A stretch of 41,360 bases of DNA from Deltaproteobacteria bacterium. GTDB taxonomy: Bacteria; Desulfobacterota; Desulfobulbia; Desulfobulbales; VMSU01. The first letter of the stretch is position 1, and every line of letters begins with the position of its first letter. Below are positions 1 through 13,664 of this stretch, piece after piece. Below the pieces are notes generated by a model. The model did no database searches. It was not told the DNA's origin and worked only from the letters and a program-made list of their open reading frames with translations. The DNA is taken from the NCBI GenBank assembly GCA_024275235.1, contig JAJRZN010000147.1, positions 1 to 41,360 of the forward strand, written 5' to 3'. A program made the translations under genes and the position numbers.

Positions 1-2518
1 CGATATCATGGCAGCTGGCGCATGTGGTGTCGGCCTGGAACTGTGTATGCACGGCTGCGGCCGTCGCCGGAGTCAGACCATGAACAGGTGCGCCGTTAGT
101 AGTGCCGTCGTGGCAGTTCTGGCAGTTAATATCTGTTCCCGCCTTCCCTGTGGTAATGGTATTTATAACGGACGACAGGGTACTGGTATGACAGGTAGTA
201 CATGCAGGATGCAGGCTGATACGTTTCGCCGCGGTATCAATATCATGGCAGCTGGCGCATGTGGTGTCGGCCTGGAACTGTGTATGCACGGCTGCGGCCG
301 TCGCCGGAGTCAGGCCGTGAAGAGGGGCGCCGTTATCCGTGCCGTCGTGGCAGTTCTGGCAGTTAATATCTGTCCCTGCCTTCCCTGTGGTAATGGTATT
401 TATAACGGACGACAGGGTACTGGTATGACAGGTAGTACATGCAGGATGCAGGCTGATCCGTTTCGCCGCGGTGCCGATATCATGGCAGCTGGCGCATGTG
501 GTGTCGGCCTGGAACTGTGTATGCACGGCTGCGGCCGTCGTCGGAGTCAGGCCGTGAAGAGGGGCGCCGTTATCCGTGCCGTCGTGGCAGTTCTGGCAGT
601 TAATATCCGTTCCCGCCTTCCCTGTGGTAATGGTATTTATAACGGACGACAGGGTACTGGTATGGCAGGTAGTACAGGCCGGATGCAGGCTGATCCGTTT
701 CGCCGCGGTATCGATATCATGGCAGCTGGCGCATGTGGTGTCGGCCTGGAACTGTGTATGCACGGCGGCGGCTGTTGCAGGAGTCAGGCCGTGGAAAGGA
801 GCGCCGTTAGTAGTTCCGTCATGGCAGGTCTCGCAGTTAACCGCTGTGCCGGCTCTGCCGCTGGCAATGGTATTCATCACCGCACTTTTTGTTGATTTGT
901 GGCAGGTGATACAGTCTGGATGCAGGCCGATTCTTTTTGCCGCCGTATCAATATCATGACAGCTGGCGCAGTTGGGGTCGCTGTTGAACATATTGTGTAA
1001 TGAGGCCGGATTACGATGGTTGGGGAAGAACGCGCCGTGGCAGGTGGTACAATCCCCGCCACCGGCCGGCATGGCTATAACATAACCATTTGGTGTGGGT
1101 ACAGTTACCAGACCGACAATATTTGTCGTGGTATTGATTACATGGCAGGTTGTGCAGGCGTTATGGACTTTTGGGTCGGTTGTACTTACCGGTACATTGT
1201 CAACTCCACCGGCAGTAGCGGTGTGACAGGTGATACAGAAGGCTGTTCCTGCTACCAGAGTTGTATGATTCCCGGCATGACCTGTGGTGGTGTTATGACA
1301 TGTAGTGCAGGCACCGTTTACTGCCGGCTGGGTATTGTGATGAATCCAGGGTTTTGGGTATGTTGTACTCGGATGGCAGGTAAGGCAGGTCGCAGTTCTG
1401 AAATTAGACAAGGCTGCACCTAATTGGGCATTGCCGTCTCCGCCTGCGCCGACGATCGTTGTTCCGGTGCCGCCGGATGGATTATTGTGGCATAATGTGC
1501 AGGTGTTTTTGTGTACTCCGGCAACTATGCCCTGACCGCCGTCAGTATGGCAGTCATTGCAGTCACCGGCCCAGGCAAAAGTCTTATCTGTGTGACCACC
1601 TGGCTTAAAGCCTTTTGCTGTGTCATGACAGGCTGTACATCTAATGGAGGCGTTGTGATCATTGAGCAGACCATCCTGAGTCCAATGGGTAGTCTTGGTA
1701 TGACAGACCTGACATATGCCGGTGGGAGGAGTCTCTTGATTGGTAAAACCGCCCACCGCATATGTGGTGTCGGGGTTAAAGAATTTAACCGGCCTTGGAT
1801 TGGGGGTGTTCGCGGGCGGGTTTGGTACTGTAATCATTGATTTGATCAACTGGCCATAGATAAGGCCAAATGACTTGGTGGCATCTGTAGAGGCAACTAC
1901 CCCCTTTACGGTTATAGTTGTGGATGTGGCCGATACCACGAGATAGGTGTTTTCAGCTGTGGCTGTATTGACAACCAGAACCAAGCCACGGTTTGAATTA
2001 GGGCTGTCGTCTTTTTTGCTCCATCTGGCCCGGCTGGTCCAGTCGCCGGTTAAATCATCGGCTGGCGCGCCACTGTAACCCAGGGTGCTGGTACCGTTAC
2101 CATTATCAGTAACCGAGTCAATGGTGCCGGTGATGAGATATAATTTGGAGGCATAGGTCGAGGCCCAATCAAGCTGGGCTTGAAAATGCGGGTCGTGGCA
2201 GTCGGTACATGACGTACTCCATGTCCCGGTGGTTGAACCGGTATTAGTGCTGGAATGAGAGAGCATAGGGGGATAAGCGGGGTGGTTGCCATCATGACAT
2301 CTGCTGCATATTGCTGAAACTATGGCACTATGGTTATGGGGTGCTGGACTCTGATCGGCTGGTGAATATTGCCACCACAATGAATACGTATGGCAGGTAG
2401 AACATTGAATGCCATTGGTCTCATTATGTGGTGCATCAATAATCGCTGCCTGAACTGCGGTTGCCGTAAGCAAAATTAGAAAGCTTAACAGCAACCGGAG
2501 TTGTTTGTCCATCTTCAT
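1..2518 (-). CDS. Large secreted multiheme c-type cytochrome (3' end outside window)
   Basis: The minus-strand frame is open without a stop from the ATG at 2518 to the window edge, giving at least 838 residues. A signal peptide comes first (MKMDKQLRLLLSF, cleavage likely near VQA-A), so the protein should be exported and haem-loaded in the periplasm or outside the cell. I count 25 CxxCH motifs, the first near residue 38 and the last 12 in tandem repeats of 79 residues. A GGGGGA stretch lies about 6 nt before the start. The first ~330 residues resemble the next gene upstream (2887-7437): both have IIDxPHNETN, YSLWWQYSP, FGLIYGQLI and CQVCHTKT. CxxCH covalently binds haem c, so a role in electron transfer or extracellular respiration is inferred; the exact partner is unknown. 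The reading frame is intact, with no frameshift in the visible part. Confidence 0.9.
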   Translation of the reverse strand, partial: MKMDKQLRLLLSFLILLTATAVQAAIIDAPHNETNGIQCSTCHTYSLWWQYSPADQSPAPHNHSAIVSAICSRCHDGNHPAYPPMLSHSSTNTGSTTGTWSTSCTDCHDPHFQAQLDWASTYASKLYLITGTIDSVTDNGNGTSTLGYSGAPADDLTGDWTSRARWSKKDDSPNSNRGLVLVVNTATAENTYLVVSATSTTITVKGVVASTDATKSFGLIYGQLIKSMITVPNPPANTPNPRPVKFFNPDTTYAVGGFTNQETPPTGICQVCHTKTTHWTQDGLLNDHNASIRCTACHDTAKGFKPGGHTDKTFAWAGDCNDCHTDGGQGIVAGVHKNTCTLCHNNPSGGTGTTIVGAGGDGNAQLGAALSNFRTATCLTCHPSTTYPKPWIHHNTQPAVNGACTTCHNTTTGHAGNHTTLVAGTAFCITCHTATAGGVDNVPVSTTDPKVHNACTTCHVINTTTNIVGLVTVPTPNGYVIAMPAGGGDCTTCHGAFFPNHRNPASLHNMFNSDPNCASCHDIDTAAKRIGLHPDCITCHKSTKSAVMNTIASGRAGTAVNCETCHDGTTNGAPFHGLTPATAAAVHTQFQADTTCASCHDIDTAAKRISLHPACTTCHTSTLSSVINTITTGKAGTDINCQNCHDGTDNGAPLHGLTPTTAAAVHTQFQADTTCASCHDIGTAAKRISLHPACTTCHTSTLSSVINTITTGKAGTDINCQNCHDGTDNGAPLHGLTPATAAAVHTQFQADTTCASCHDIDTAAKRISLHPACTTCHTSTLSSVINTITTGKAGTDINCQNCHDGTTNGAPVHGLTPATAAAVHTQFQADTTCASCHDI
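2..949. repeat. 237-bp tandem coding repeats, four units
   Basis: The same sequence recurs at offsets of exactly 237 bp: the motif TATCATGGCAGCTGGCGCAT starts at 4, 241, 478 and 715, and a diverged form follows at 952. Each unit encodes 79 residues with three CxxCH motifs (CTTCH, CQNCH, CASCH) read on the minus strand. The three units nearest the window edge are nearly identical in DNA; the fourth (713-949) is more diverged (CITCH, CETCH). The array continues off the window, so its copy number is unknown. The period is a multiple of three, so copy changes keep the frame. Confidence 0.93.
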
Positions 2519-2851: not shown

Positions 2852-2886
2852 ACATATGGTATGCCGAAGGCCTGCCAAATCACTAA
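2852..2886. repeat. Remnant related to the palindromic element at 7699-7864
   Basis: ACATATGGTATGCCGAAGG at 2852-2870 is the exact reverse complement of 7750-7768 inside the MITE-like element. The following CCTGCCAAA and ATCACTAACTA also have counterparts there. The segment abuts, and its last bases overlap, the 3' end of the neighbouring gene. Confidence 0.55.
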
Positions 2887-5800
2887 CTATTTTACAAACT
2901 CATAGGCTCCGATATCACTTGCCGGGCCTTGCGGTCTCGGGGTTCCCGCAATATCTTTTGCGGGGGCATATGCACTGTCGGCGTGGTCAATGGCATCAGA
3001 AGAGATAGTCAGGTGGTAATTTCTACCTGCCGCGTTAACAAAGAAAGGATCGTTTTCGGATTGATAGCCGTTAACTGTAGGGGCAGATGATAATATGCCT
3101 GCAACATAAGGCCCGTCGCCGAAATTACCGTCACCGTCATTGTTCATGACGATATTGCTCATAGTCAGGCTGCCGCGGTTAAAATAGACAAAGTCACCGC
3201 TGGTGGCTGCTTGATTGCCCCATAGAATACTGTTTCTGACGGTAATAGCGGCGGAGTTTGAGGTAAGAATCACTCCACCGCTGCCTGTAATCGCCTGGTT
3301 GTCGGCTACTGTGGAGTTGGTAAAAGTTAGCGGGGCACCGTTGGTGAAAATCGCCCCTCCCCCCGCCGCCTTGTTACCGGCGATAATGGAATTAGTAAAT
3401 TCTGCCGATGAGGAACCATTAATCATGTCAACGGCCCCGCCGTTTTTGGTCGCAGTATTATCGATAAGACTGCAACCAAAGAAATGTACACTGGAATTAT
3501 TTACATATATCGCTCCGCCGTTGACTTTAGAGCTGTTATTCTTGAAAATACTGCCTGTGATGGTGGCTGAGGTATTCTGGATATAGATCGCGCCTCCACC
3601 GCCGGTGCCGGAACCCGCGGCGGTATTATTATGGAAAATGGAGTTGGTAATAACATGGTTGCTGCCGCTGCTCAGATGGATTGCGGCACCGTAATCATTG
3701 TCAAGGTTGTAAAATTCACTGTTGGAGACGGTAAGTGTGCTGCCGTTTGCCATGATGCCCTGTTTACAGTCATGAATTTTACTATGGTTAATTGTTGAAG
3801 TTGCGCCGTTGAGGTAGATTTCCGTATTGGCGCTGGAGCCGCCGATGATCTGGAAGCCGTCCACCGTTGAGCCGGTGTTAGTATGGAAGTAGATAACATA
3901 GGTTGTTCCATCGCCTTGAATGATGGTGCTATCCGGGCCGCAGACCGAGCGCACTGTGGTGTTATTGTCATTGCTGCCGCTGAAGGAAAGATTCTCATTG
4001 TACGTCCCGTCATAGACCAGAACGGTATGGGCGCTGTTGCTGGCATCAATGGCGGCCTGGATGGTTGAGTACCAGCCTGTGCCGCCGGCCAGTCTGACCT
4101 TGTATGCCTTAACCACGGTGAATGTATGATCGCTGGTGGGGCCGCCCACCGCGTTGTCTATGCCGTCCGAGGCCTGGAAACGATATTTCAGGTCATTCTG
4201 ATTGTCGCTGCCCGGCATGGCGATTTGCTGGGTCAGGCTGTAGAGTTTACCATCGGCACAATTAGTATCGCCGGTATCAACCGCGGTTAAATTATGTTTT
4301 TCTCCGGCATCGTAAAGGCCGTTATTGTTGGTATCGATCCAGACCTGAATATTACCTGTTGCCGGGCATTGGTTGTCTAAATCGGTGTAGTTGACGAGGA
4401 AATTAAAATCAGTGCCGCCAGCCCCGAGTGGCGGTTCAACACCGCCTGTTCGACAGCTGCCATTCACCCAGGTAAGGGTAGGCGGGGTATTGGTCGTTGT
4501 CTTGACGGTGAGGGCGTTGGTGGCCACGGGGCTGCCGGTGGCATCCGCCTGACCGTCTGAGGCGTAGAAACGATAATTAAGTACACCGTCTCCGGTAAAG
4601 GCAAGAGGCAGGCTCAGGGTGTATAATTTCCCATCGCTGTATGTCGTATCATTGCTGTCAACAGCGGTCATGCTGTGTTTCTCATCAGCTTCGTAGGTTC
4701 CGTTGTCGTTACTGTCAACCCAGAGCTGAATTGCTGCCGGGGCGGTATTGTTGCTGTCGGTATAACTTACCCGAAAAACGAAATTGGCCCCGTTGCCGCC
4801 GATATTCGGGTTTACCCCGTCCGTTATATAACCTGTTTCATTGGTCCAGGAGAGAACAGGCGCATTGTTTAAAATGGTAATCGAACCGCCGGTAGCCGGA
4901 CTGCCGGTGGCATCACCGCCGCCGCTGGTGCCGTCTGAGGCGTAGAAACGGTAATTGATGACATTGGCAGCCGGGTTTAAGATGGATATTGTTTTGGTAT
5001 AGAGCTTACCGTTGGTGTAATCGTTGTCCGCTCCATTGACGGCGGTCATGGCATATTTTTCATCGGCCTCGTAGGTGCCGTTATTATTTTCATCAATCCA
5101 TACCTCAATGGGGCTTGGAGTATCGTTGTTGAGGTCGGTGTATTTTACCCGGAAGGTAAAGGTGGCGGTGGCGGAACTGCCGGGTGATACACCGTCGGCC
5201 TCATAGCCGGTTTCGCCGGTCCAGTCAAGGGTTGGCGCCTGGGCCACGTCCTCGAAAGGAGTCCGGTATGTTGGTGATATTCTGGAGTTACCATGACAAC
5301 CCGTGCAGACGTTGGCGACGGTGGTACTTTTCCATAGTATACCGGTGCTGGCGCTGAGCGGCAGGTCTTCGGGCTGTGGCGGGTTGACACCATCATTATA
5401 GACTATGGCATCGTTGTTGTACCACATCTGTATGCCCGGTGTCCGGCCGGTGAGCCTGCCGTCCCTGACCATGGCCAGACGGGTAGAACCGTGGACGTTG
5501 TGGCAGGTAATGCAGGTTGGCCGGCTGGTGTTGGCACCGTTCCAGTCAGCAGGAAAGAGTAACGAATTCAAAGACAGATGGAAGGCATGGCGGTTGATGC
5601 CTTTGTTTACCAGGTTAGTATTCATGTTAGTAGAGTCGGTAAACGGCCCTGAATCATGACAGTTGACACATAACCGGTAATTATTGGCCACATTGCCTGC
5701 GTTTTTCCCGGCAGGGATAAGCAGGGGCTCACGGCCGTTGGCGCCGGTGCCGGTGCCGGCAGCGACGAGTTTAAGTCGGTAGTCTTTACGATAAACGCTG

Positions 5801-7437
5801 GGGGCGGTAGTGCTGCTGTCATTATCGTTATAAGGCCGGGCAACTCCGAAGATATGCCTGGTGGTAAAATCATGGCAATTGGCGCAGGTCAGCGGCCGAC
5901 CGCTGAGGGTGGCTGTTCCACCTTCAGACGGGAAGGTCCTGGCGGCGGGAAGGCCATGGCCGGTCTTGTAGAATCCCCAGCCGGTTCCGTAGGTATAGGC
6001 CCCGCTTTCATCGCCTATGACGTTGGGAGCGCTGATTCCCTTGACTACAGAAGGAACCTCATCGTGACAGGTGGCGCACCATTTGTCTTTGCCTGGCTTC
6101 AGGCTGCCGCTGGTATTGTAAATGCCTTTTGCCCAGTTGGCTTTGGCGCCGATAACCGGGTCGTTGACCCCGTCGTAGGTGCCGCCTGGACTGTGGCAGC
6201 CATTACAGATGTCGGTTTCAGCCAGGGTATGGTTACCCGTGCCGTCCTGATTTTTAAATTTCGGCATATTGTTCAGGTCGTGGCAGCTGGCGCAGTAAAG
6301 TGCCGGACCCCGCTGATCATCACTGTCAACTTCCGTATGTGTTGAGTGGCTCTGAAAGGTTCCTGCCCCTATACTTGCTATGCCCTCGGAATTGGGGACA
6401 TACGGCGGGCCGGTTTTGGTCATATCGGGGTCGTAAATGGTTCCCTTGTCATGGCCGTGGCACTGGACGCACCCAGTTCCACCTCCACCTGCCGCGCCTC
6501 CTGTGCCGCCGTGGGCGAAGCCGCCATGGTGGGAATGGCAGGTAATACAGTTCGCGGTAACCTGGCCGCTGTGATCATAGCCGTCTGTGGTGGCGTTTAT
6601 CTCGCCGGTATTGCGGAAGTGCCGGGTTTTTGTGTGACATACCTGGCATATGCCATCATTGTCTCCGAGATGAACAAATCCCCCCTTGGGATTAAAGAAT
6701 TTGACATTGGCCATTGTGCCGTAAACGTTTATCTGATCTCGGATTAACTGGCCGTAAATTAGACCAAACTTGGTGCTGTCGGCGGCGTAGGAGGCCTTGA
6801 GGCGTCCCCTTACCGTAACCTCTGACTGCCCTTCGTTTACTCCGGTTATCTCATAGGTGTTGTCAGAGGTGGATATGGGCAGGGTGAGTATAAGTCCACG
6901 GCCGGCGGTACCGGATTTGGCTGTCCATGGTGTGGTGGCATTGTCCCATCCCGCGGCGTTTATGACCAGATTCTGATATTTAAAGGTGCTGTAATAGGGC
7001 GAAGAGGGGGTGCCGCTGCCGGTTACGGAAAGTGAACCGGGAACTAAGGCTCCGGTTATTAGATAAAGGGTATCGGCCGGTACGGATTGGCTCCAGTTGA
7101 GCTGATCCTGAAAATGAGGGTCGTGGCAGTCAATGCAGGCGCGGGACCAGTCGCCAAGGGCGGCCCGATGGGCAGGGCCAATGGCCGCGCTGGCGTGAGT
7201 TACCTCGGTAATCTCCGGCCCGGAATCACCGTGGCAGGTAAGACAAACGGCATTGGTCTTTGCGCTTCGAAGCTGTGGATTGCTTAAGAGTGGGGAATAT
7301 TGCCACCATAAAGAATAATTGTGGCAATTGACGCAGGAAATATTATTAGTTTCATTATGTGGTGTATCAATGATTGAAGCGTTTGCCTGGCCGACCCCCA
7401 GGCAGATTAGAAATAATAGCAGAAATATTTGTTTCAT
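2887..7437 (-). CDS. Secreted multiheme cytochrome with repeated Ca-loop-like modules and beta-helix domain
   Basis: The 1516-residue protein has four parts. A signal peptide (MKQIFLLLFL..., cleavage after ANA) is followed by a region with 13 CxxCH motifs (residues ~34-711). Three repeats of ~125 residues follow (starting ~739, ~864, ~989), each with a WxxETGY-like start, a D-x-N-x-N-G-x-Y loop resembling calcium-binding loops, and KLYxxT / NYRFYASDG-like strands. A right-handed parallel beta-helix (~1109-1516) ends in the DIAGTPRPQ / DIGAYEF signature of choice-of-anchor Q proteins. I chose the ATG at 7437 because AAGGGA sits 6 nt upstream and the signal peptide starts there; an ATG at 7464 lacks a ribosome site. 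The N-terminus is homologous to the cytochrome at 1-2518. A surface redox or adhesive role is inferred; the binding partner is unknown. Confidence 0.9.
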   Translation of the reverse strand: MKQIFLLLFLICLGVGQANASIIDTPHNETNNISCVNCHNYSLWWQYSPLLSNPQLRSAKTNAVCLTCHGDSGPEITEVTHASAAIGPAHRAALGDWSRACIDCHDPHFQDQLNWSQSVPADTLYLITGALVPGSLSVTGSGTPSSPYYSTFKYQNLVINAAGWDNATTPWTAKSGTAGRGLILTLPISTSDNTYEITGVNEGQSEVTVRGRLKASYAADSTKFGLIYGQLIRDQINVYGTMANVKFFNPKGGFVHLGDNDGICQVCHTKTRHFRNTGEINATTDGYDHSGQVTANCITCHSHHGGFAHGGTGGAAGGGGTGCVQCHGHDKGTIYDPDMTKTGPPYVPNSEGIASIGAGTFQSHSTHTEVDSDDQRGPALYCASCHDLNNMPKFKNQDGTGNHTLAETDICNGCHSPGGTYDGVNDPVIGAKANWAKGIYNTSGSLKPGKDKWCATCHDEVPSVVKGISAPNVIGDESGAYTYGTGWGFYKTGHGLPAARTFPSEGGTATLSGRPLTCANCHDFTTRHIFGVARPYNDNDSSTTAPSVYRKDYRLKLVAAGTGTGANGREPLLIPAGKNAGNVANNYRLCVNCHDSGPFTDSTNMNTNLVNKGINRHAFHLSLNSLLFPADWNGANTSRPTCITCHNVHGSTRLAMVRDGRLTGRTPGIQMWYNNDAIVYNDGVNPPQPEDLPLSASTGILWKSTTVANVCTGCHGNSRISPTYRTPFEDVAQAPTLDWTGETGYEADGVSPGSSATATFTFRVKYTDLNNDTPSPIEVWIDENNNGTYEADEKYAMTAVNGADNDYTNGKLYTKTISILNPAANVINYRFYASDGTSGGGDATGSPATGGSITILNNAPVLSWTNETGYITDGVNPNIGGNGANFVFRVSYTDSNNTAPAAIQLWVDSNDNGTYEADEKHSMTAVDSNDTTYSDGKLYTLSLPLAFTGDGVLNYRFYASDGQADATGSPVATNALTVKTTTNTPPTLTWVNGSCRTGGVEPPLGAGGTDFNFLVNYTDLDNQCPATGNIQVWIDTNNNGLYDAGEKHNLTAVDTGDTNCADGKLYSLTQQIAMPGSDNQNDLKYRFQASDGIDNAVGGPTSDHTFTVVKAYKVRLAGGTGWYSTIQAAIDASNSAHTVLVYDGTYNENLSFSGSNDNNTTVRSVCGPDSTIIQGDGTTYVIYFHTNTGSTVDGFQIIGGSSANTEIYLNGATSTINHSKIHDCKQGIMANGSTLTVSNSEFYNLDNDYGAAIHLSSGSNHVITNSIFHNNTAAGSGTGGGGAIYIQNTSATITGSIFKNNSSKVNGGAIYVNNSSVHFFGCSLIDNTATKNGGAVDMINGSSSAEFTNSIIAGNKAAGGGAIFTNGAPLTFTNSTVADNQAITGSGGVILTSNSAAITVRNSILWGNQAATSGDFVYFNRGSLTMSNIVMNNDGDGNFGDGPYVAGILSSAPTVNGYQSENDPFFVNAAGRNYHLTISSDAIDHADSAYAPAKDIAGTPRPQGPASDIGAYEFVK

Positions 7438-7631
7438 GGTCGTCCCTTGCTCCCTTTTTGGCATTTGGGGATTATATGATGAATGGTAAAAAAGTATAGA
7501 CTATAGTCCAAGCAATATTTGTACCGGTATAAAGAAAAAACGTCGCTTAATGGAGACATGACGTCAGTAGGGCTTTATTGGCCAATATAACAGTACTTGT
7601 TGTTTCTGCGGTTATTCCTGCTGCATGGTGA

Positions 7632-7698: not shown

Positions 7699-7864
7699 TT
7701 GATGGCGTCGTAAAAAGTCCGATCTACGGTGTTGTGGCGTTTCGGCAGACCTTCGGCATACCATATGTATGGCCAAAGCCCTGCCAAACCACCACGCCTC
7801 GCAGTCTTCGCTTAGCTGATTTAGCCATCTTTAGTTAGTGATGGACTTTTTACGAGTCCATCAA
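7699..7864. mobile_element. 166-bp MITE-like palindromic element
   Basis: The ends form terminal inverted repeats of 22 nt with two mismatches (7699-7720 and 7843-7864); their core is TCGTAAAAAGTCC / GGACTTTTTACGA. The interior is also partly self-complementary (GGCGTTTCGGCAG against CTGCCAAACCACC). It has no coding capacity. AAGTTTGAT occurs at both outer edges (7695-7703 and 7863-7871), a possible footprint of the insertion target. The non-autonomous nature and the transposase that would move it are inferred. Confidence 0.7.
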
Positions 7865-7875
7865 GTTTGATATAC

Positions 7876-7925
7876 CGGTAAGCGAACATCGTGAGACTCC
7901 CGGTAAGCGAACATCGTGAGACTCC
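7876..7925. repeat. Two perfect tandem copies of a 25-bp unit
   Basis: Positions 7876-7900 and 7901-7925 are identical; each unit starts CGGTAAGCGAAC and ends GTGAGACTCC. No function is evident. Confidence 0.9.
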
Positions 7926-8103: not shown

Positions 8104-8895
8104 CTATTTGCCGGTAATCATATGAAAGACCCTGGGACTTACCACTACGGCTGAACGGATGGCTACGCCCTGATTGTTAACCTGGTCGGCGGCGGTGATT
8201 ACAATACTGTAAGTGCCGGTTGCGGCGGGGACGAAATGGGTTGCGAAATCACCAACAGTACCATCGTAGGTCATGGGCAGTTCGCTTATCTTTTTACCAT
8301 TTTTCAAGATGGTGGCGCGGATGGTATATTTATTGGCATCCCACAGGAAATCAGGGCTGATCGGGCAGCCGCACATGGGGCTGATATGGGCCGCGATCTT
8401 AATGTTGTCGCCCACGAGATGGAACTCATGGGGGACTGGTGAGGATGGTTCCACCATGAGGCCGTAGAGAGTGAAAATGATACCGTCCTTATCGAGATTA
8501 CGGCCGGGAATCAACCATACCGTCTTGCTCTCCCGGTGAAGATCAATGCCGGCGGAGAGGGGGCCGCTTATTTCAATGAGCAGTTTAACCGGATGATTAA
8601 TGTCCAAGGTGGTGGTAAATGATGCCGCTTTTTTTCCGGCTATCTGCTCACCGCGTTTCAGGGGCTTTTGCATCAGAAGTTTGGTATTTCCCGTACCTCC
8701 GGCGATCATCCCGTCGGCCAGAATTTTGCCGGTGTTAAAGTCTTTGACAGCCACGGCTATGCCGCCTACTGCCGTGCCGATAAACTTGGCATCGTTGGCT
8801 CTGGCTCTGACCACCAGCGTGGTGGGGATGGCAAAGGCCGGGATGGAGCTCAGGACGAATAAAAGTGCAAAAATGCTGAGTGCCAGTTTTTTCAT
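8104..8895 (-). CDS. Secreted protein of unknown function
   Basis: The 263-residue product begins with a clear signal peptide (MKKLALSIFALLFVLSS, cleavage after AFA), so it is exported. An ideal ribosome site (AAAGGAGG) lies 7-8 nt before the ATG. The mature part looks beta-rich. It has an Ile/Val-rich N-terminal strand region, a PMCGCPISPD segment around residue 175 with two cysteines two residues apart, and a C-terminal Ig-like stretch (GTYSIVITAADQVNNQG). It is a single transcription unit: its own terminator follows. I do not recognise the family. Position next to the two cytochrome genes suggests an envelope role, but nothing in the sequence shows it directly; the CGC pair could bind metal or form a disulfide. 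Confidence 0.85.
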   Translation of the reverse strand: MKKLALSIFALLFVLSSIPAFAIPTTLVVRARANDAKFIGTAVGGIAVAVKDFNTGKILADGMIAGGTGNTKLLMQKPLKRGEQIAGKKAASFTTTLDINHPVKLLIEISGPLSAGIDLHRESKTVWLIPGRNLDKDGIIFTLYGLMVEPSSPVPHEFHLVGDNIKIAAHISPMCGCPISPDFLWDANKYTIRATILKNGKKISELPMTYDGTVGDFATHFVPAATGTYSIVITAADQVNNQGVAIRSAVVVSPRVFHMITGK

Positions 8896-10140: not shown

Positions 10141-13100
10141 ATGACTGCTACCGATTTCGTTCACCTCCACGTTCATACTCAATACAGCCTTCTGGACGGG
10201 GCCATCCGCTTTAATGATCTCTATGCCAAATGCCATGAATTCGGCATGGATACCGTGACCATTACTGATCATGGTACCATGTTCGGGGCTCTGGAATTTT
10301 ATGAGACAGCGAGGAAGGCCAAGCTGAAGCCCATTATCGGTTGTGAATTTTATGTCGCCCCCCACAGTCGTAAGATTAAGGGCGGCAAGACGGCTGGTGA
10401 GGTGCTTTACTATCATCTTGTTCTTCTTGCCATGAATAAAAACGGCTATCAGAATCTTCTGAAACTGGCCAGTTACGCCCAGCTGGACGGCTATTACTAT
10501 AAGCCGCGGATTGATAAAGAACTGTTACGGGAGCATAGCGCCGATCTTATTGCCCTTTCTGCCTGTCTACATGGAGAGGTGGCCTATCAGGTTGGTCATA
10601 ACCGGGATATGAAGGCGGCAGTGAAGGCGGCTTCTGAGTTTAAGGATCTTTTTGGTGACCGCTTTTATCTTGAGCTTCAGGAAAACGGTCTTGAGGAACA
10701 AAAAGTTGTCAATGACGGCCTGAAAAAGATAGCGGCGGAGCTTGACATGCAGCTGGTGGCCACCAACGACTGCCATTATCTTAATCGTGAAGACGCCGCC
10801 GCCCATGAGGTTCTGCTCTGTATCCAGACCGGCAAGACCATGGATGACCCCAAGCGCTTTAAATTTTCCACTGATGAACTCTATTTTAAGTCACCGGCTG
10901 ATATGGCCCGTGATTTTGCCCATTGCCCGGAGGCTCTTGCTAACGCGGCCGTTATTGCCGGCCGCTGTAATCTTGAGCTGGAGTATGGTGAAAGCTGCTT
11001 CCCTGTTTTGAGCCGCCTGAGGGCTATACCCTGAGTACATTTTTTGAGAAGCAGGCCCGGGACGGTCTGGAGGAACGTCTTGAAGAACTCAGGGGCAGTG
11101 ATGGCTTAAGTACCGAGCAGGAGGAAATATATCGTCAGCGCATGGATATGGAGGTTGGGGTTATCAAGACCATGGGATTTCCGGCCTATTTTCTCATTGT
11201 GGCCGACTTTATAAACTGGTCCAAGAGTCAGGGCATTCCCGTGGGACCGGGCCGCGGTTCCGGGGCCGGCAGTCTGGCCGCTTACAGTATGCGGATTACC
11301 GATATTGACCCCATTCGTCACGGCCTGATATTTGAGCGCTTTCTGAATATCGAACGGCAGGGGATGCCGGATTTTGATATTGATTTCTGCCAGACCCGCC
11401 GCGGTGAAGTCATTGAATACGTCAAGAGGCGGTATGGCGGTGAGGATCATGTGGCCCAGATCGCTGCCTATGGCTCCATGAAGGCCAAAGGGGTAATCCG
11501 CGATGTGGGCCGCGCCCTGGCCATGCCCTTTGGCGAGGTTGACCGCATTGCCAAGCTGGTGCCCAATGTCCTGGGTATTACCCTGCCCAAGGCCCTGAAA
11601 CAGGAACCGCGCCTGCAGGATTTGATGAAGCGGGATGAACAGGTGGCTAAATTAATGACCATCGCCATGCGCCTTGAGGGGCTGCCGCGCCATATATCCA
11701 CTCATGCCGCTGGTGTGGTTATTTCACCTGAGCCCATGATGGAATATCTGCCTGTCTGCCGTGATTCCAAGGGTGATGTAATTACCCAATATGACAAGAA
11801 ATATACTGAAAAGACCGGTCTGATAAAATTCGATTTTCTGGGGCTGAAGACCCTGACGGTGATTGAAAACGCCATTAAACTCATTGCCAAGGTTATTGGA
11901 GAGCGTCTTAATCTGGCAGCTATCAGCATGGATGACGTTAAGACCTTTAAACTCCTGCGTAAAGGCGATGCCCTGGGGGTTTTTCAGTTGGAAAGCTCTG
12001 GGATGAGAGCCCTGCTCATGGATATGCAGCCCGAGGTCTTCAGCGATCTGGTGGCTCTGGTGGCCCTTTATCGGCCCGGCCCCTTAGAGAGCGGCATGGT
12101 CTCTGATTTTGTCAACACCAAACATGGCCGCATGGTGGCCAAATACCCCCTGCCTCAGTTAAAACCTATTCTGGAGGAGACCTACGGGGTTATCGTCTAT
12201 CAGGAACAGGTCATGAAAATCGCCAATGTCCTGGCTAACTACAGCCTGGGTGATGCCGATATTCTGCGCCGGGCCATGGGTAAAAAGGTCAAGGAGATCA
12301 TGGATAATGAAAAAGAAAAATTCATGGCCGGTGCCCTGGCTAATAATATTCCCCAGGATAAAGCGGAATATATATTCGACCTCATGGCCAAATTCGCGGG
12401 TTATGGTTTCAATAAATCCCACAGTGCCGCCTATGCCCTTATTTCCTATCAGACCGCCTATCTGAAGGCCCATTATCCAGCCCAGTTTATGGCCGCTTTA
12501 TTGTCCTGCGATGTAAATAATACCGACAAGGTTGTCCTCTATATTAATGAATGTAAACATCATGGTATAGAGGTTTTGCCGCCGGACATCAACGAGAGTG
12601 ACAAGGATTTTAATGTCATTGAAGGGCGGATCCGCTTTGGTCTGGCTGCCATCAAGAATGTTGGTGACGCGGCCCTGGATTCTATTATTGAGGAACGAGA
12701 GAAGGAGGGGCCGTACACCTCGCTTGAAGATTTCTGCTCCCGTATTGATTCCCGGCGGGTCAACAAGAGGGTGATAGAGAGCCTCATTAAAACCGGGGGG
12801 TTTGATTCCTTGGGAGCTCGGCGTTCGCAGATGTTTGCTGTTCTTGATCAGGCTCTGGAACAGGCTCAGGCCGCCCAGCGGGATAAGTTAAGCGGCCAGT
12901 TTTCCCTCTTTGAAATGCTTCCTGAGGATGAAAACAATAAGAATCAGGCCATCCCCCTGCCCGATATTCCCGAATGGAGTCAGAAGAAGATGCTGGCTGC
13001 TGAAAAGGAGATGGTGGGGTATTATATTTCCGGTCATCCCTTGGATAATTATCAGCAGGATCTGGCCGACCTGGTGGATGCTAATCTCATGGAGGTTGCT

Positions 13101-13664
13101 GCCAGTAAGCATGAGCGGCAGGTGCGGGTCGGGGGGCTGGTGCGAACCTGGAAAGAGCATAAGAGTAAGAAGAAAGAACGAATGGCCTTTGTTACTCTGG
13201 AGGATTTGACCGGCAGTATTGAGGTGATTGTTTTTCCCCGCACCTTTGCTGAGTGTTCTGAGCTCTTAGATAGTGAAGAAGCCTTGATTATTCAGGGCCG
13301 TCTGCAGACTGATGAAGAACGGGGCGAGGCCAAAATTATTGCCGATTCAGTTGATTCCCTGTTAGGTGCCAGGGAAAAATTTACCGAAAAAACCATTGTT
13401 CGTTTGCGGGCGGAGACCATCTCCCGGCCCGTTATGCAGAGGGTAAAGCAGGTATTACAGAAGTTTTATGGCAGCTGCCCGGTGAGTCTGATAATTCATT
13501 TTGAACAGCGGGGTGAGGTTGATATAGATGTTCCCGGGGATATGACCATTAGGCCTTGCCGGGAATTTCGCCAGGAGGTCGTTGATTTAATGGCTGATTG
13601 CCAGGTACTGTTCCAGCCCAAAGCGGTTGAGATAAAACAGCCCCGTAAATGGTCGAAAAAATAA
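10141..13664 (+). CDS. dnaE: DNA polymerase III alpha subunit, interrupted by a -1 frameshift
   Basis: Main replicative polymerase, ~1174 residues after correction (normal length). The PHP domain (HLHVH, TDHGTMFG) is followed by the polymerase core with the catalytic-Asp segments PDFDIDFC (~residue 410) and IKFDFLGL (~564), GRGSGAGS, a clamp-binding motif QFSLF (~919) and an OB domain (VRVGGLV...VTLEDLTGSIEV). The frame breaks at the T-tract 11006-11009: the upstream frame ends at 11034, while the downstream frame is open from 11010 (EPPEGYTLSTFFEKQ). A fifth T would restore VFEPPEGY. Everything downstream is intact, and the gene is essential in bacteria, so a sequence error or a very recent lesion is most likely. 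GTTTTG is not a classic slippery heptamer. Confidence 0.95.

What the first reader, a model, noticed from the sequence alone, without database searches (positions are those of the whole stretch)
2887..7437. Fusion of multiheme cytochrome, three Ca-loop-like modules and a beta-helix
One secreted chain joins 13 haem motifs to repeated modules with D-x-N-x-N-G-x-Y loops and a parallel beta-helix of the choice-of-anchor Q type. Beta-helices often bind polysaccharide or serve as surface rods, so this could be a redox protein that is also surface-anchored or adhesive. I do not know a characterised protein with this layout.
Basis: partly seen in the sequence, partly recalled or inferred. Interest (0 to 1): 0.7.

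Follow-up and report, generated by a model that had tools for sequence, protein, structure and literature searches.

The report
Extracellular cytochrome fused to beta-helix
A secreted bacterial protein carries thirteen haem groups for moving electrons, joined to three small sandwich-shaped modules and a coiled beta-helix rod; the same fixed layout recurs in many related sulfur-cycling bacteria, often beside genes for cytochromes of the nanowire-forming OmcS kind, so it is probably an electron-transfer protein that also holds on to something outside the cell.

Summary
Window 2887-7464 (minus strand, likely start 7437) encodes one chain with 13 CXXCH motifs, three ~122-residue modules with D-x-N-x-N-G-x-Y-type loops and a C-terminal right-handed beta-helix ending in a choice-of-anchor Q domain. 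It is no chance fusion: the order 11-13 haems, modules (nearly always three), helix recurs in at least 14 of 258 genomes of the class (probably Desulfobulbia) plus two of another family of the phylum. Long versions append four modules and a second helix. Conserved extra histidines suffice for all 13 haems. In 8 loci (7 genomes) the gene lies close to an OmcS homologue, and in most loci beside an NHL beta-propeller gene; the window's own genus lacks both neighbours. "Surface anchored" is only partly supported: no C-terminal anchor follows the Q domain, and no catalytic-type residues are conserved along the helix. Best reading: a secreted extracellular electron-transfer cytochrome whose modules and helix bind matrix polysaccharide, filament or partner surface. 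Cytochrome plus beta-helix fusions have a published archaeal precedent (ANME MHC-C, PMC9012536), so this is a new variant of a known kind. Function and binding are inferred, not shown.

The parts
2887..7464 (-). whole ORF, 1525 aa from first ATG; probable start at 7437 (1516 aa)
   Evidence: homologue L037/L056 starts at the same MKQ
7378..7437 (-). putative Sec signal peptide (residues 10-29, cut after ANA)
   Evidence: sequence inspection only; no predictor available
5245..7377 (-). 13-haem cytochrome part (residues 30-740)
   Evidence: 13 CXXCH; Cytochrome_C7, Paired_CXXCH_1, MtrC/F II-IV models; 11 invariant plus 3 near-invariant extra His in 17 homologues
6679..7074 (-). haem-free insert between haems 3 and 4 (residues 131-262); largely missing in two homologues
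4873..5238 (-). module 1 (residues 743-864), loop DENNNGTY at 5071-5094
4504..4863 (-). module 2 (residues 868-987), loop DSNDNGTY at 4693-4716
   Evidence: fold model
4114..4485 (-). module 3 (residues 994-1117), loop DTNNNGLY at 4312-4335
3022..4104 (-). right-handed parallel beta-helix (residues 1121-1481)
   Evidence: Pfam Beta_helix; model with repeated short-strand rungs; best Foldseek hits are beta-helices, E>1e-3
2896..3021 (-). choice-of-anchor Q domain (residues 1482-1523), end of chain
   Evidence: NF041518, 38.6 bits against cut-off 25
2..2518 (-). next gene downstream: cytochrome with at least 25 CXXCH sharing the N-terminal part of the fusion; runs off the contig
8104..8895 (-). 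upstream gene: 263-aa secreted protein of unknown family, also upstream of the homologue in the same genus (91% identical)

Best explanation
A secreted extracellular multihaem c-type cytochrome. SHOWN: a 13-haem electron-transfer part with enough conserved second histidines for bis-His ligation, then a fixed run of three GEVED-like beta-sandwich modules with acidic loops, then a right-handed beta-helix capped by a choice-of-anchor Q domain; the layout is old in this lineage; relatives are genomically linked to OmcS-homologous cytochromes and NHL beta-propellers. INFERRED: the acidic loops hold calcium and stiffen the stalk; the helix and modules bind an extracellular surface (matrix polysaccharide, cytochrome filament, or partner cell) and so hold the haem part in the extracellular electron path, where it passes electrons between OmcS-like or other outer cytochromes and a solid or cellular acceptor or donor.
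For: Domain hits. Conserved histidines: 11 invariant plus 3 near-invariant for 13 haems. Same layout in 10 families, 9 of the class and 1 outside it. Modules nearly as conserved as the haem core (47-52% against 51%), helix 36%, so the modules are not free spacers. Module positions orthologous between species (12-13 of 17 nearest neighbours at the same position). OmcS homologue identified by its only PDB match, 6ef8, E 8e-7. OmcS-like gene near the fusion in 8 loci of 7 genomes (roughly 1-3% chance each); 13 of 14 genomes with a verified fusion also encode an OmcS-like gene against 67 of 244 others (not corrected for relatedness). NHL propeller adjacent in most loci. Closest solved relative of the module is in a multimodular xanthanase. 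Mostly structural residues conserved along the helix.
Against: The window's own genus has neither OmcS-like nor NHL gene next to the fusion; its OmcS-like gene is on another contig. No outer-membrane anchor, porin or secretion system was identified with it. Extracellular location, haem loading, calcium and ligand binding are untested. Co-occurrence can reflect shared ancestry.
Confidence: 0.5

Rival explanations
1. It is a dedicated accessory of an OmcS-like filament: the haem part docks on the filament and the helix forms its tip or its base on the cell.
For: Shared gene cluster OmcS-like / NHL propeller / (TPR) / fusion in several families; electron-transfer chemistry compatible.
Against: Many OmcS-bearing genomes lack the fusion; in the window's genus the genes are apart; no contact evidence.
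Confidence: 0.17
2. The modules and helix are only a structural rod or cell-envelope scaffold, possibly needed for export or folding, without specific ligand binding.
For: Helix conserves Asn/Gly ladders rather than surface residues; long forms just add more modules and a second helix.
Against: Modules are as conserved as the haem core and keep their positions.
Confidence: 0.18
3. The beta-helix is an active polysaccharide lyase or epimerase fused to a cytochrome.
For: Weak fold matches are mostly polysaccharide lyases, epimerases and tailspikes.
Against: Matches have E above 1e-3 on a low-confidence model; no conserved Asp/Glu/Lys/Arg/His cluster along the helix in 15 homologues.
Confidence: 0.05
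4. It is a periplasmic cytochrome that stores or relays electrons inside the envelope.
For: Signal peptide only; no proven route across the outer membrane.
Against: 1500-3000 aa with Ig-like modules and beta-helix is typical of extracellular proteins (general knowledge); linkage to OmcS-like genes.
Confidence: 0.1

Closest known systems
ANME MHC type C (PMC9012536)
   Same: giant multihaem cytochrome fused to a pectin-lyase-like (beta-helix) domain; carbohydrate attachment suggested
   Different: archaeal; the pectin-lyase-like domain is N-terminal; different order; homology to this family not tested here
OetF, cytochrome with fibronectin domains in syntrophic sulfate reducers (PMC10553843)
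   Same: extracellular cytochrome carrying adhesion-type domains in Desulfobacterota, with OmcS-like genes in the wider system
   Different: no fn3 match in the window protein; no oetABI porin recognised next to the fusion loci examined
OmcS and the OmcS-like DA_402 of Desulfurivibrio alkaliphilus (6ef8; PMC12545173)
   Same: relatives of the fusion lie beside OmcS homologues; DA_402 is raised over 100-fold during sulfide oxidation with iron oxide
   Different: OmcS is a ~400-aa six-haem filament subunit; the fusion is 1500-3000 aa with 11-13 haems and its haem profile does not find OmcS
MtrC/MtrF outer-membrane decahaem cytochromes (PF22113)
   Same: domain II/IV match, 43.1 bits
   Different: 13 haems, no lipobox seen, no porin partners found nearby
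Paenibacillus xanthanase 6fhj, C-terminal-side beta module (residues 820-912)
   Same: module fold and sequence (E 2.7e-7)
   Different: lacks the window's D-x-N-x-N-G loop insert; part of a GH9 enzyme

Membership tests
choice-of-anchor Q domain (NF041518) | score above curated cut-off of 25 bits | tested here: met
   38.6 bits; homologues 28.7-42.1
choice-of-anchor Q proteins with a surface anchor | C-terminal sorting or anchoring signal after the domain | tested here: not met
   chain ends 2 residues after the domain; no LPXTG, PEP-CTERM-like or transmembrane tail (by inspection)
right-handed beta-helix (PF13229) | score above gathering cut-off and beta-helix fold | tested here: met
   48.2 bits, cut-off 25.9; rung pattern in a low-confidence model
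GEVED domain (PF20009) | score above gathering cut-off 24.4 | tested here: inconclusive
   33.5 bits for the window protein, 34-37 in two homologues, 20.9 in one and none in L080
multihaem c-type cytochrome | multiple CXXCH with second His ligands | tested here: met
   13 CXXCH, 14 conserved extra His; haem loading itself not testable here
OmcS-type filament subunit | ~400 aa, six haems, homologous to 6ef8 | tested here: not met
   1525 aa, 13 haems; profile of the haem part finds only 3ubr weakly, not 6ef8
MtrC/OmcA outer-membrane decahaem lipoprotein | lipobox, ten haems, mtrAB-type porin-cytochrome neighbours | tested here: not met
   13 haems, no lipobox by inspection, no porin-cytochrome neighbours recognised
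[quoted passage not shown]
   helix is C-terminal, bacterial genome; sequence relation not tested
calcium-binding modules | bound calcium | not testable with these tools
   acidic loop present in 68 of 89 modules; binding not shown

The most novel reading that the evidence does not exclude
The fusion is a widespread, previously undescribed component of OmcS-like cytochrome-wire systems in Desulfobulbia: a haem-bearing tip or anchor that ties a conductive filament to matrix, mineral or partner cells through its modules and beta-helix.
Probability: 0.15. Interest if true: 0.75.

Novelty: new variant of a known kind. Interest (0 to 1): 0.5.

Why it matters
How extracellular cytochromes and cytochrome filaments are held to the cell, the matrix or a partner is an open question. 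A conserved protein joining the redox part to a likely binding part in one chain, often encoded beside OmcS-like genes, gives a concrete candidate that can be expressed and tested.

Tried and rejected
A chance or misassembled fusion: rejected, since independent contigs from many genomes carry it as one open frame. A mobile element bracketed by the 28-nt inverted repeat at 2852-2879 and 7741-7768: rejected, since that repeat's core occurs at 35 places in the genome. Module number varying by recent duplication: disfavoured, since positions are mostly orthologous. Active lyase: disfavoured. Fold search with the helix model: low-confidence model (pLDDT 57), matches not significant. Literature searches for multihaem plus beta-helix in Desulfobulbia, and for giant cytochrome fusions, found no described family with this layout; the library holds only open-licence papers. 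Named relatives: the one genome-contig scan gave only two.

Full report
Observation. It carries 13 CXXCH motifs between residues 44 and 720; by composition (33 Cys and 45 His in 1525) about 0.02 would be expected. Three modules lie at 743-864, 868-987 and 994-1117, with loops DENNNGTY, DSNDNGTY and DTNNNGLY. Pfam and NCBIfam give Beta_helix (48.2 bits) and choice-of-anchor Q (38.6 bits) at the C-terminus.

Haem part. In 17 homologues the haem sites are kept in nearly all (the sixth site is partly gapped in three alignment rows, the last is altered in one or two), and 11 further histidines are invariant with three more in 13 of 14 to 16 of 17. That is enough for bis-histidine ligation of every haem, which is inferred. 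A haem-free insert (131-262) is poorly conserved and mostly missing in two homologues. The first ~340 residues are shared with four other cytochromes of the same genome, of 11, at least 25, 25 and 27 haems, one of them the next gene downstream.

Modules. They are 45-55% identical to each other in the window protein. A six-row alignment gave a beta-sandwich model (pLDDT 74). By both fold and sequence the closest solved structure is one module of a multimodular xanthanase, 6fhj residues 820-912. The papers I read do not say that this module binds xanthan itself, so it hints at the fold and setting, not at the ligand. Across 17 proteins each module's nearest relative in another protein is usually at the same position (13, 13 and 12 of 17), so the three-module run is old. 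Modules are 47-52% identical on average between the window and 14 homologues, the haem core 51%, the helix 36%.

Helix. The model has low overall confidence (pLDDT 57) with better-predicted central rungs; the best Foldseek matches are beta-helix proteins, all above E 1e-3. Conserved positions along the helix are mostly Asn, Gly and a few hydrophobics, with E1157 and W1415; conserved charged residues cluster only in the Q domain (H1484, D1504, R1510, D1517, E1522). This speaks against a lyase-like active site.

Distribution. Searching 258 genomes of the class, 30 matched at E 1e-20 or better; in 14 of them a true fusion ORF (haems, modules and helix) was read. Several other matches reflect only the shared N-terminal part. 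In the phylum sample, two genomes of another family have the fusion with 11 haems and three modules; the one scanned has the Q domain at 42.1 bits. Long forms of 2600-3020 aa add, in most cases, four modules and a second helix. The class is taken to be Desulfobulbia: a same-genus record, HyVt-567, is labelled Desulfobacterales in NCBI, and the rest is inference.

Neighbourhood. In eight loci of seven genomes the fusion lies within about 10 kb of a six-haem cytochrome family whose only PDB match is OmcS (6ef8, E 8e-7). An NHL beta-propeller protein is the adjacent or next-but-one gene on the same strand in most loci with known flanks, including one outside the class. A small TPR protein is present in five. 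OmcS-like genes occur in 80 of 258 genomes, and in 13 of 14 with a verified fusion (Fisher p 1e-6, not corrected for relatedness). In the window's own genus the flanks differ: a 263-aa secreted protein upstream and a cytochrome of at least 25 haems downstream; the genome's OmcS-like gene sits on another contig beside a beta-barrel-like ORF and, further upstream, a SPOR/NHL-like protein (the last two named by eye). NHL proteins near extracellular cytochrome genes are also reported in Desulfovibrio ferrophilus and Geoalkalibacter (PMC9769857, PMC12016550).

Interpretation. Shown: architecture, conservation, recurrence and genomic association. Inferred: export, haem loading, calcium, ligand binding and electron partners. 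The best reading is an extracellular electron-transfer cytochrome with a binding stalk. A filament-accessory role is an attractive special case but rests on gene linkage alone.

Known and new. A multihaem cytochrome with a pectin-lyase-like domain is published for archaea (ANME MHC-C, PMC9012536), and a cytochrome with fibronectin domains for syntrophic sulfate reducers (OetF, PMC10553843). An OmcS-like protein of Desulfurivibrio alkaliphilus is strongly induced on iron oxide (PMC12545173). I found no description of the present layout, within an open-licence library. Hence: new variant of a known kind.

Noticed in passing
window 1-2518 (-): Cytochrome with at least 25 CXXCH and a 237-nt (79-aa) tandem repeat, cut by the contig end; a likely repeat-driven assembly break.
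   Followed up: partly
window 2852-2879, 7741-7768 and 33 other places in the genome: Interspersed repeat CATATGGTATGCCGAAGG, 35 copies with at most one mismatch, none for the reversed control.
   Followed up: partly
window 7875-7924: Perfect tandem duplication of 25 nt in the intergenic region upstream of the fusion gene.
   Followed up: no
window 10141-11034 and 11142-13664 (+): Two adjacent ORFs that both look like DNA polymerase III alpha subunit (dnaE), out of frame with each other: real split or sequencing/assembly error (identity by eye).
   Followed up: no
L036 (JAADGA010000198.1): Record labelled Alphaproteobacteria encodes a 90% identical copy of the fusion; probably a misbinned contig.
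   Followed up: no
L082 10683-13046 (-), G605: Haem part of the family (14 CXXCH) without modules or helix in a genome of another part of the phylum.
   Followed up: no
L044 and L045 (G248 contig C161): The cluster OmcS-like, NHL and fusion (with a TPR gene in one copy) is present twice in tandem on one contig.
   Followed up: partly
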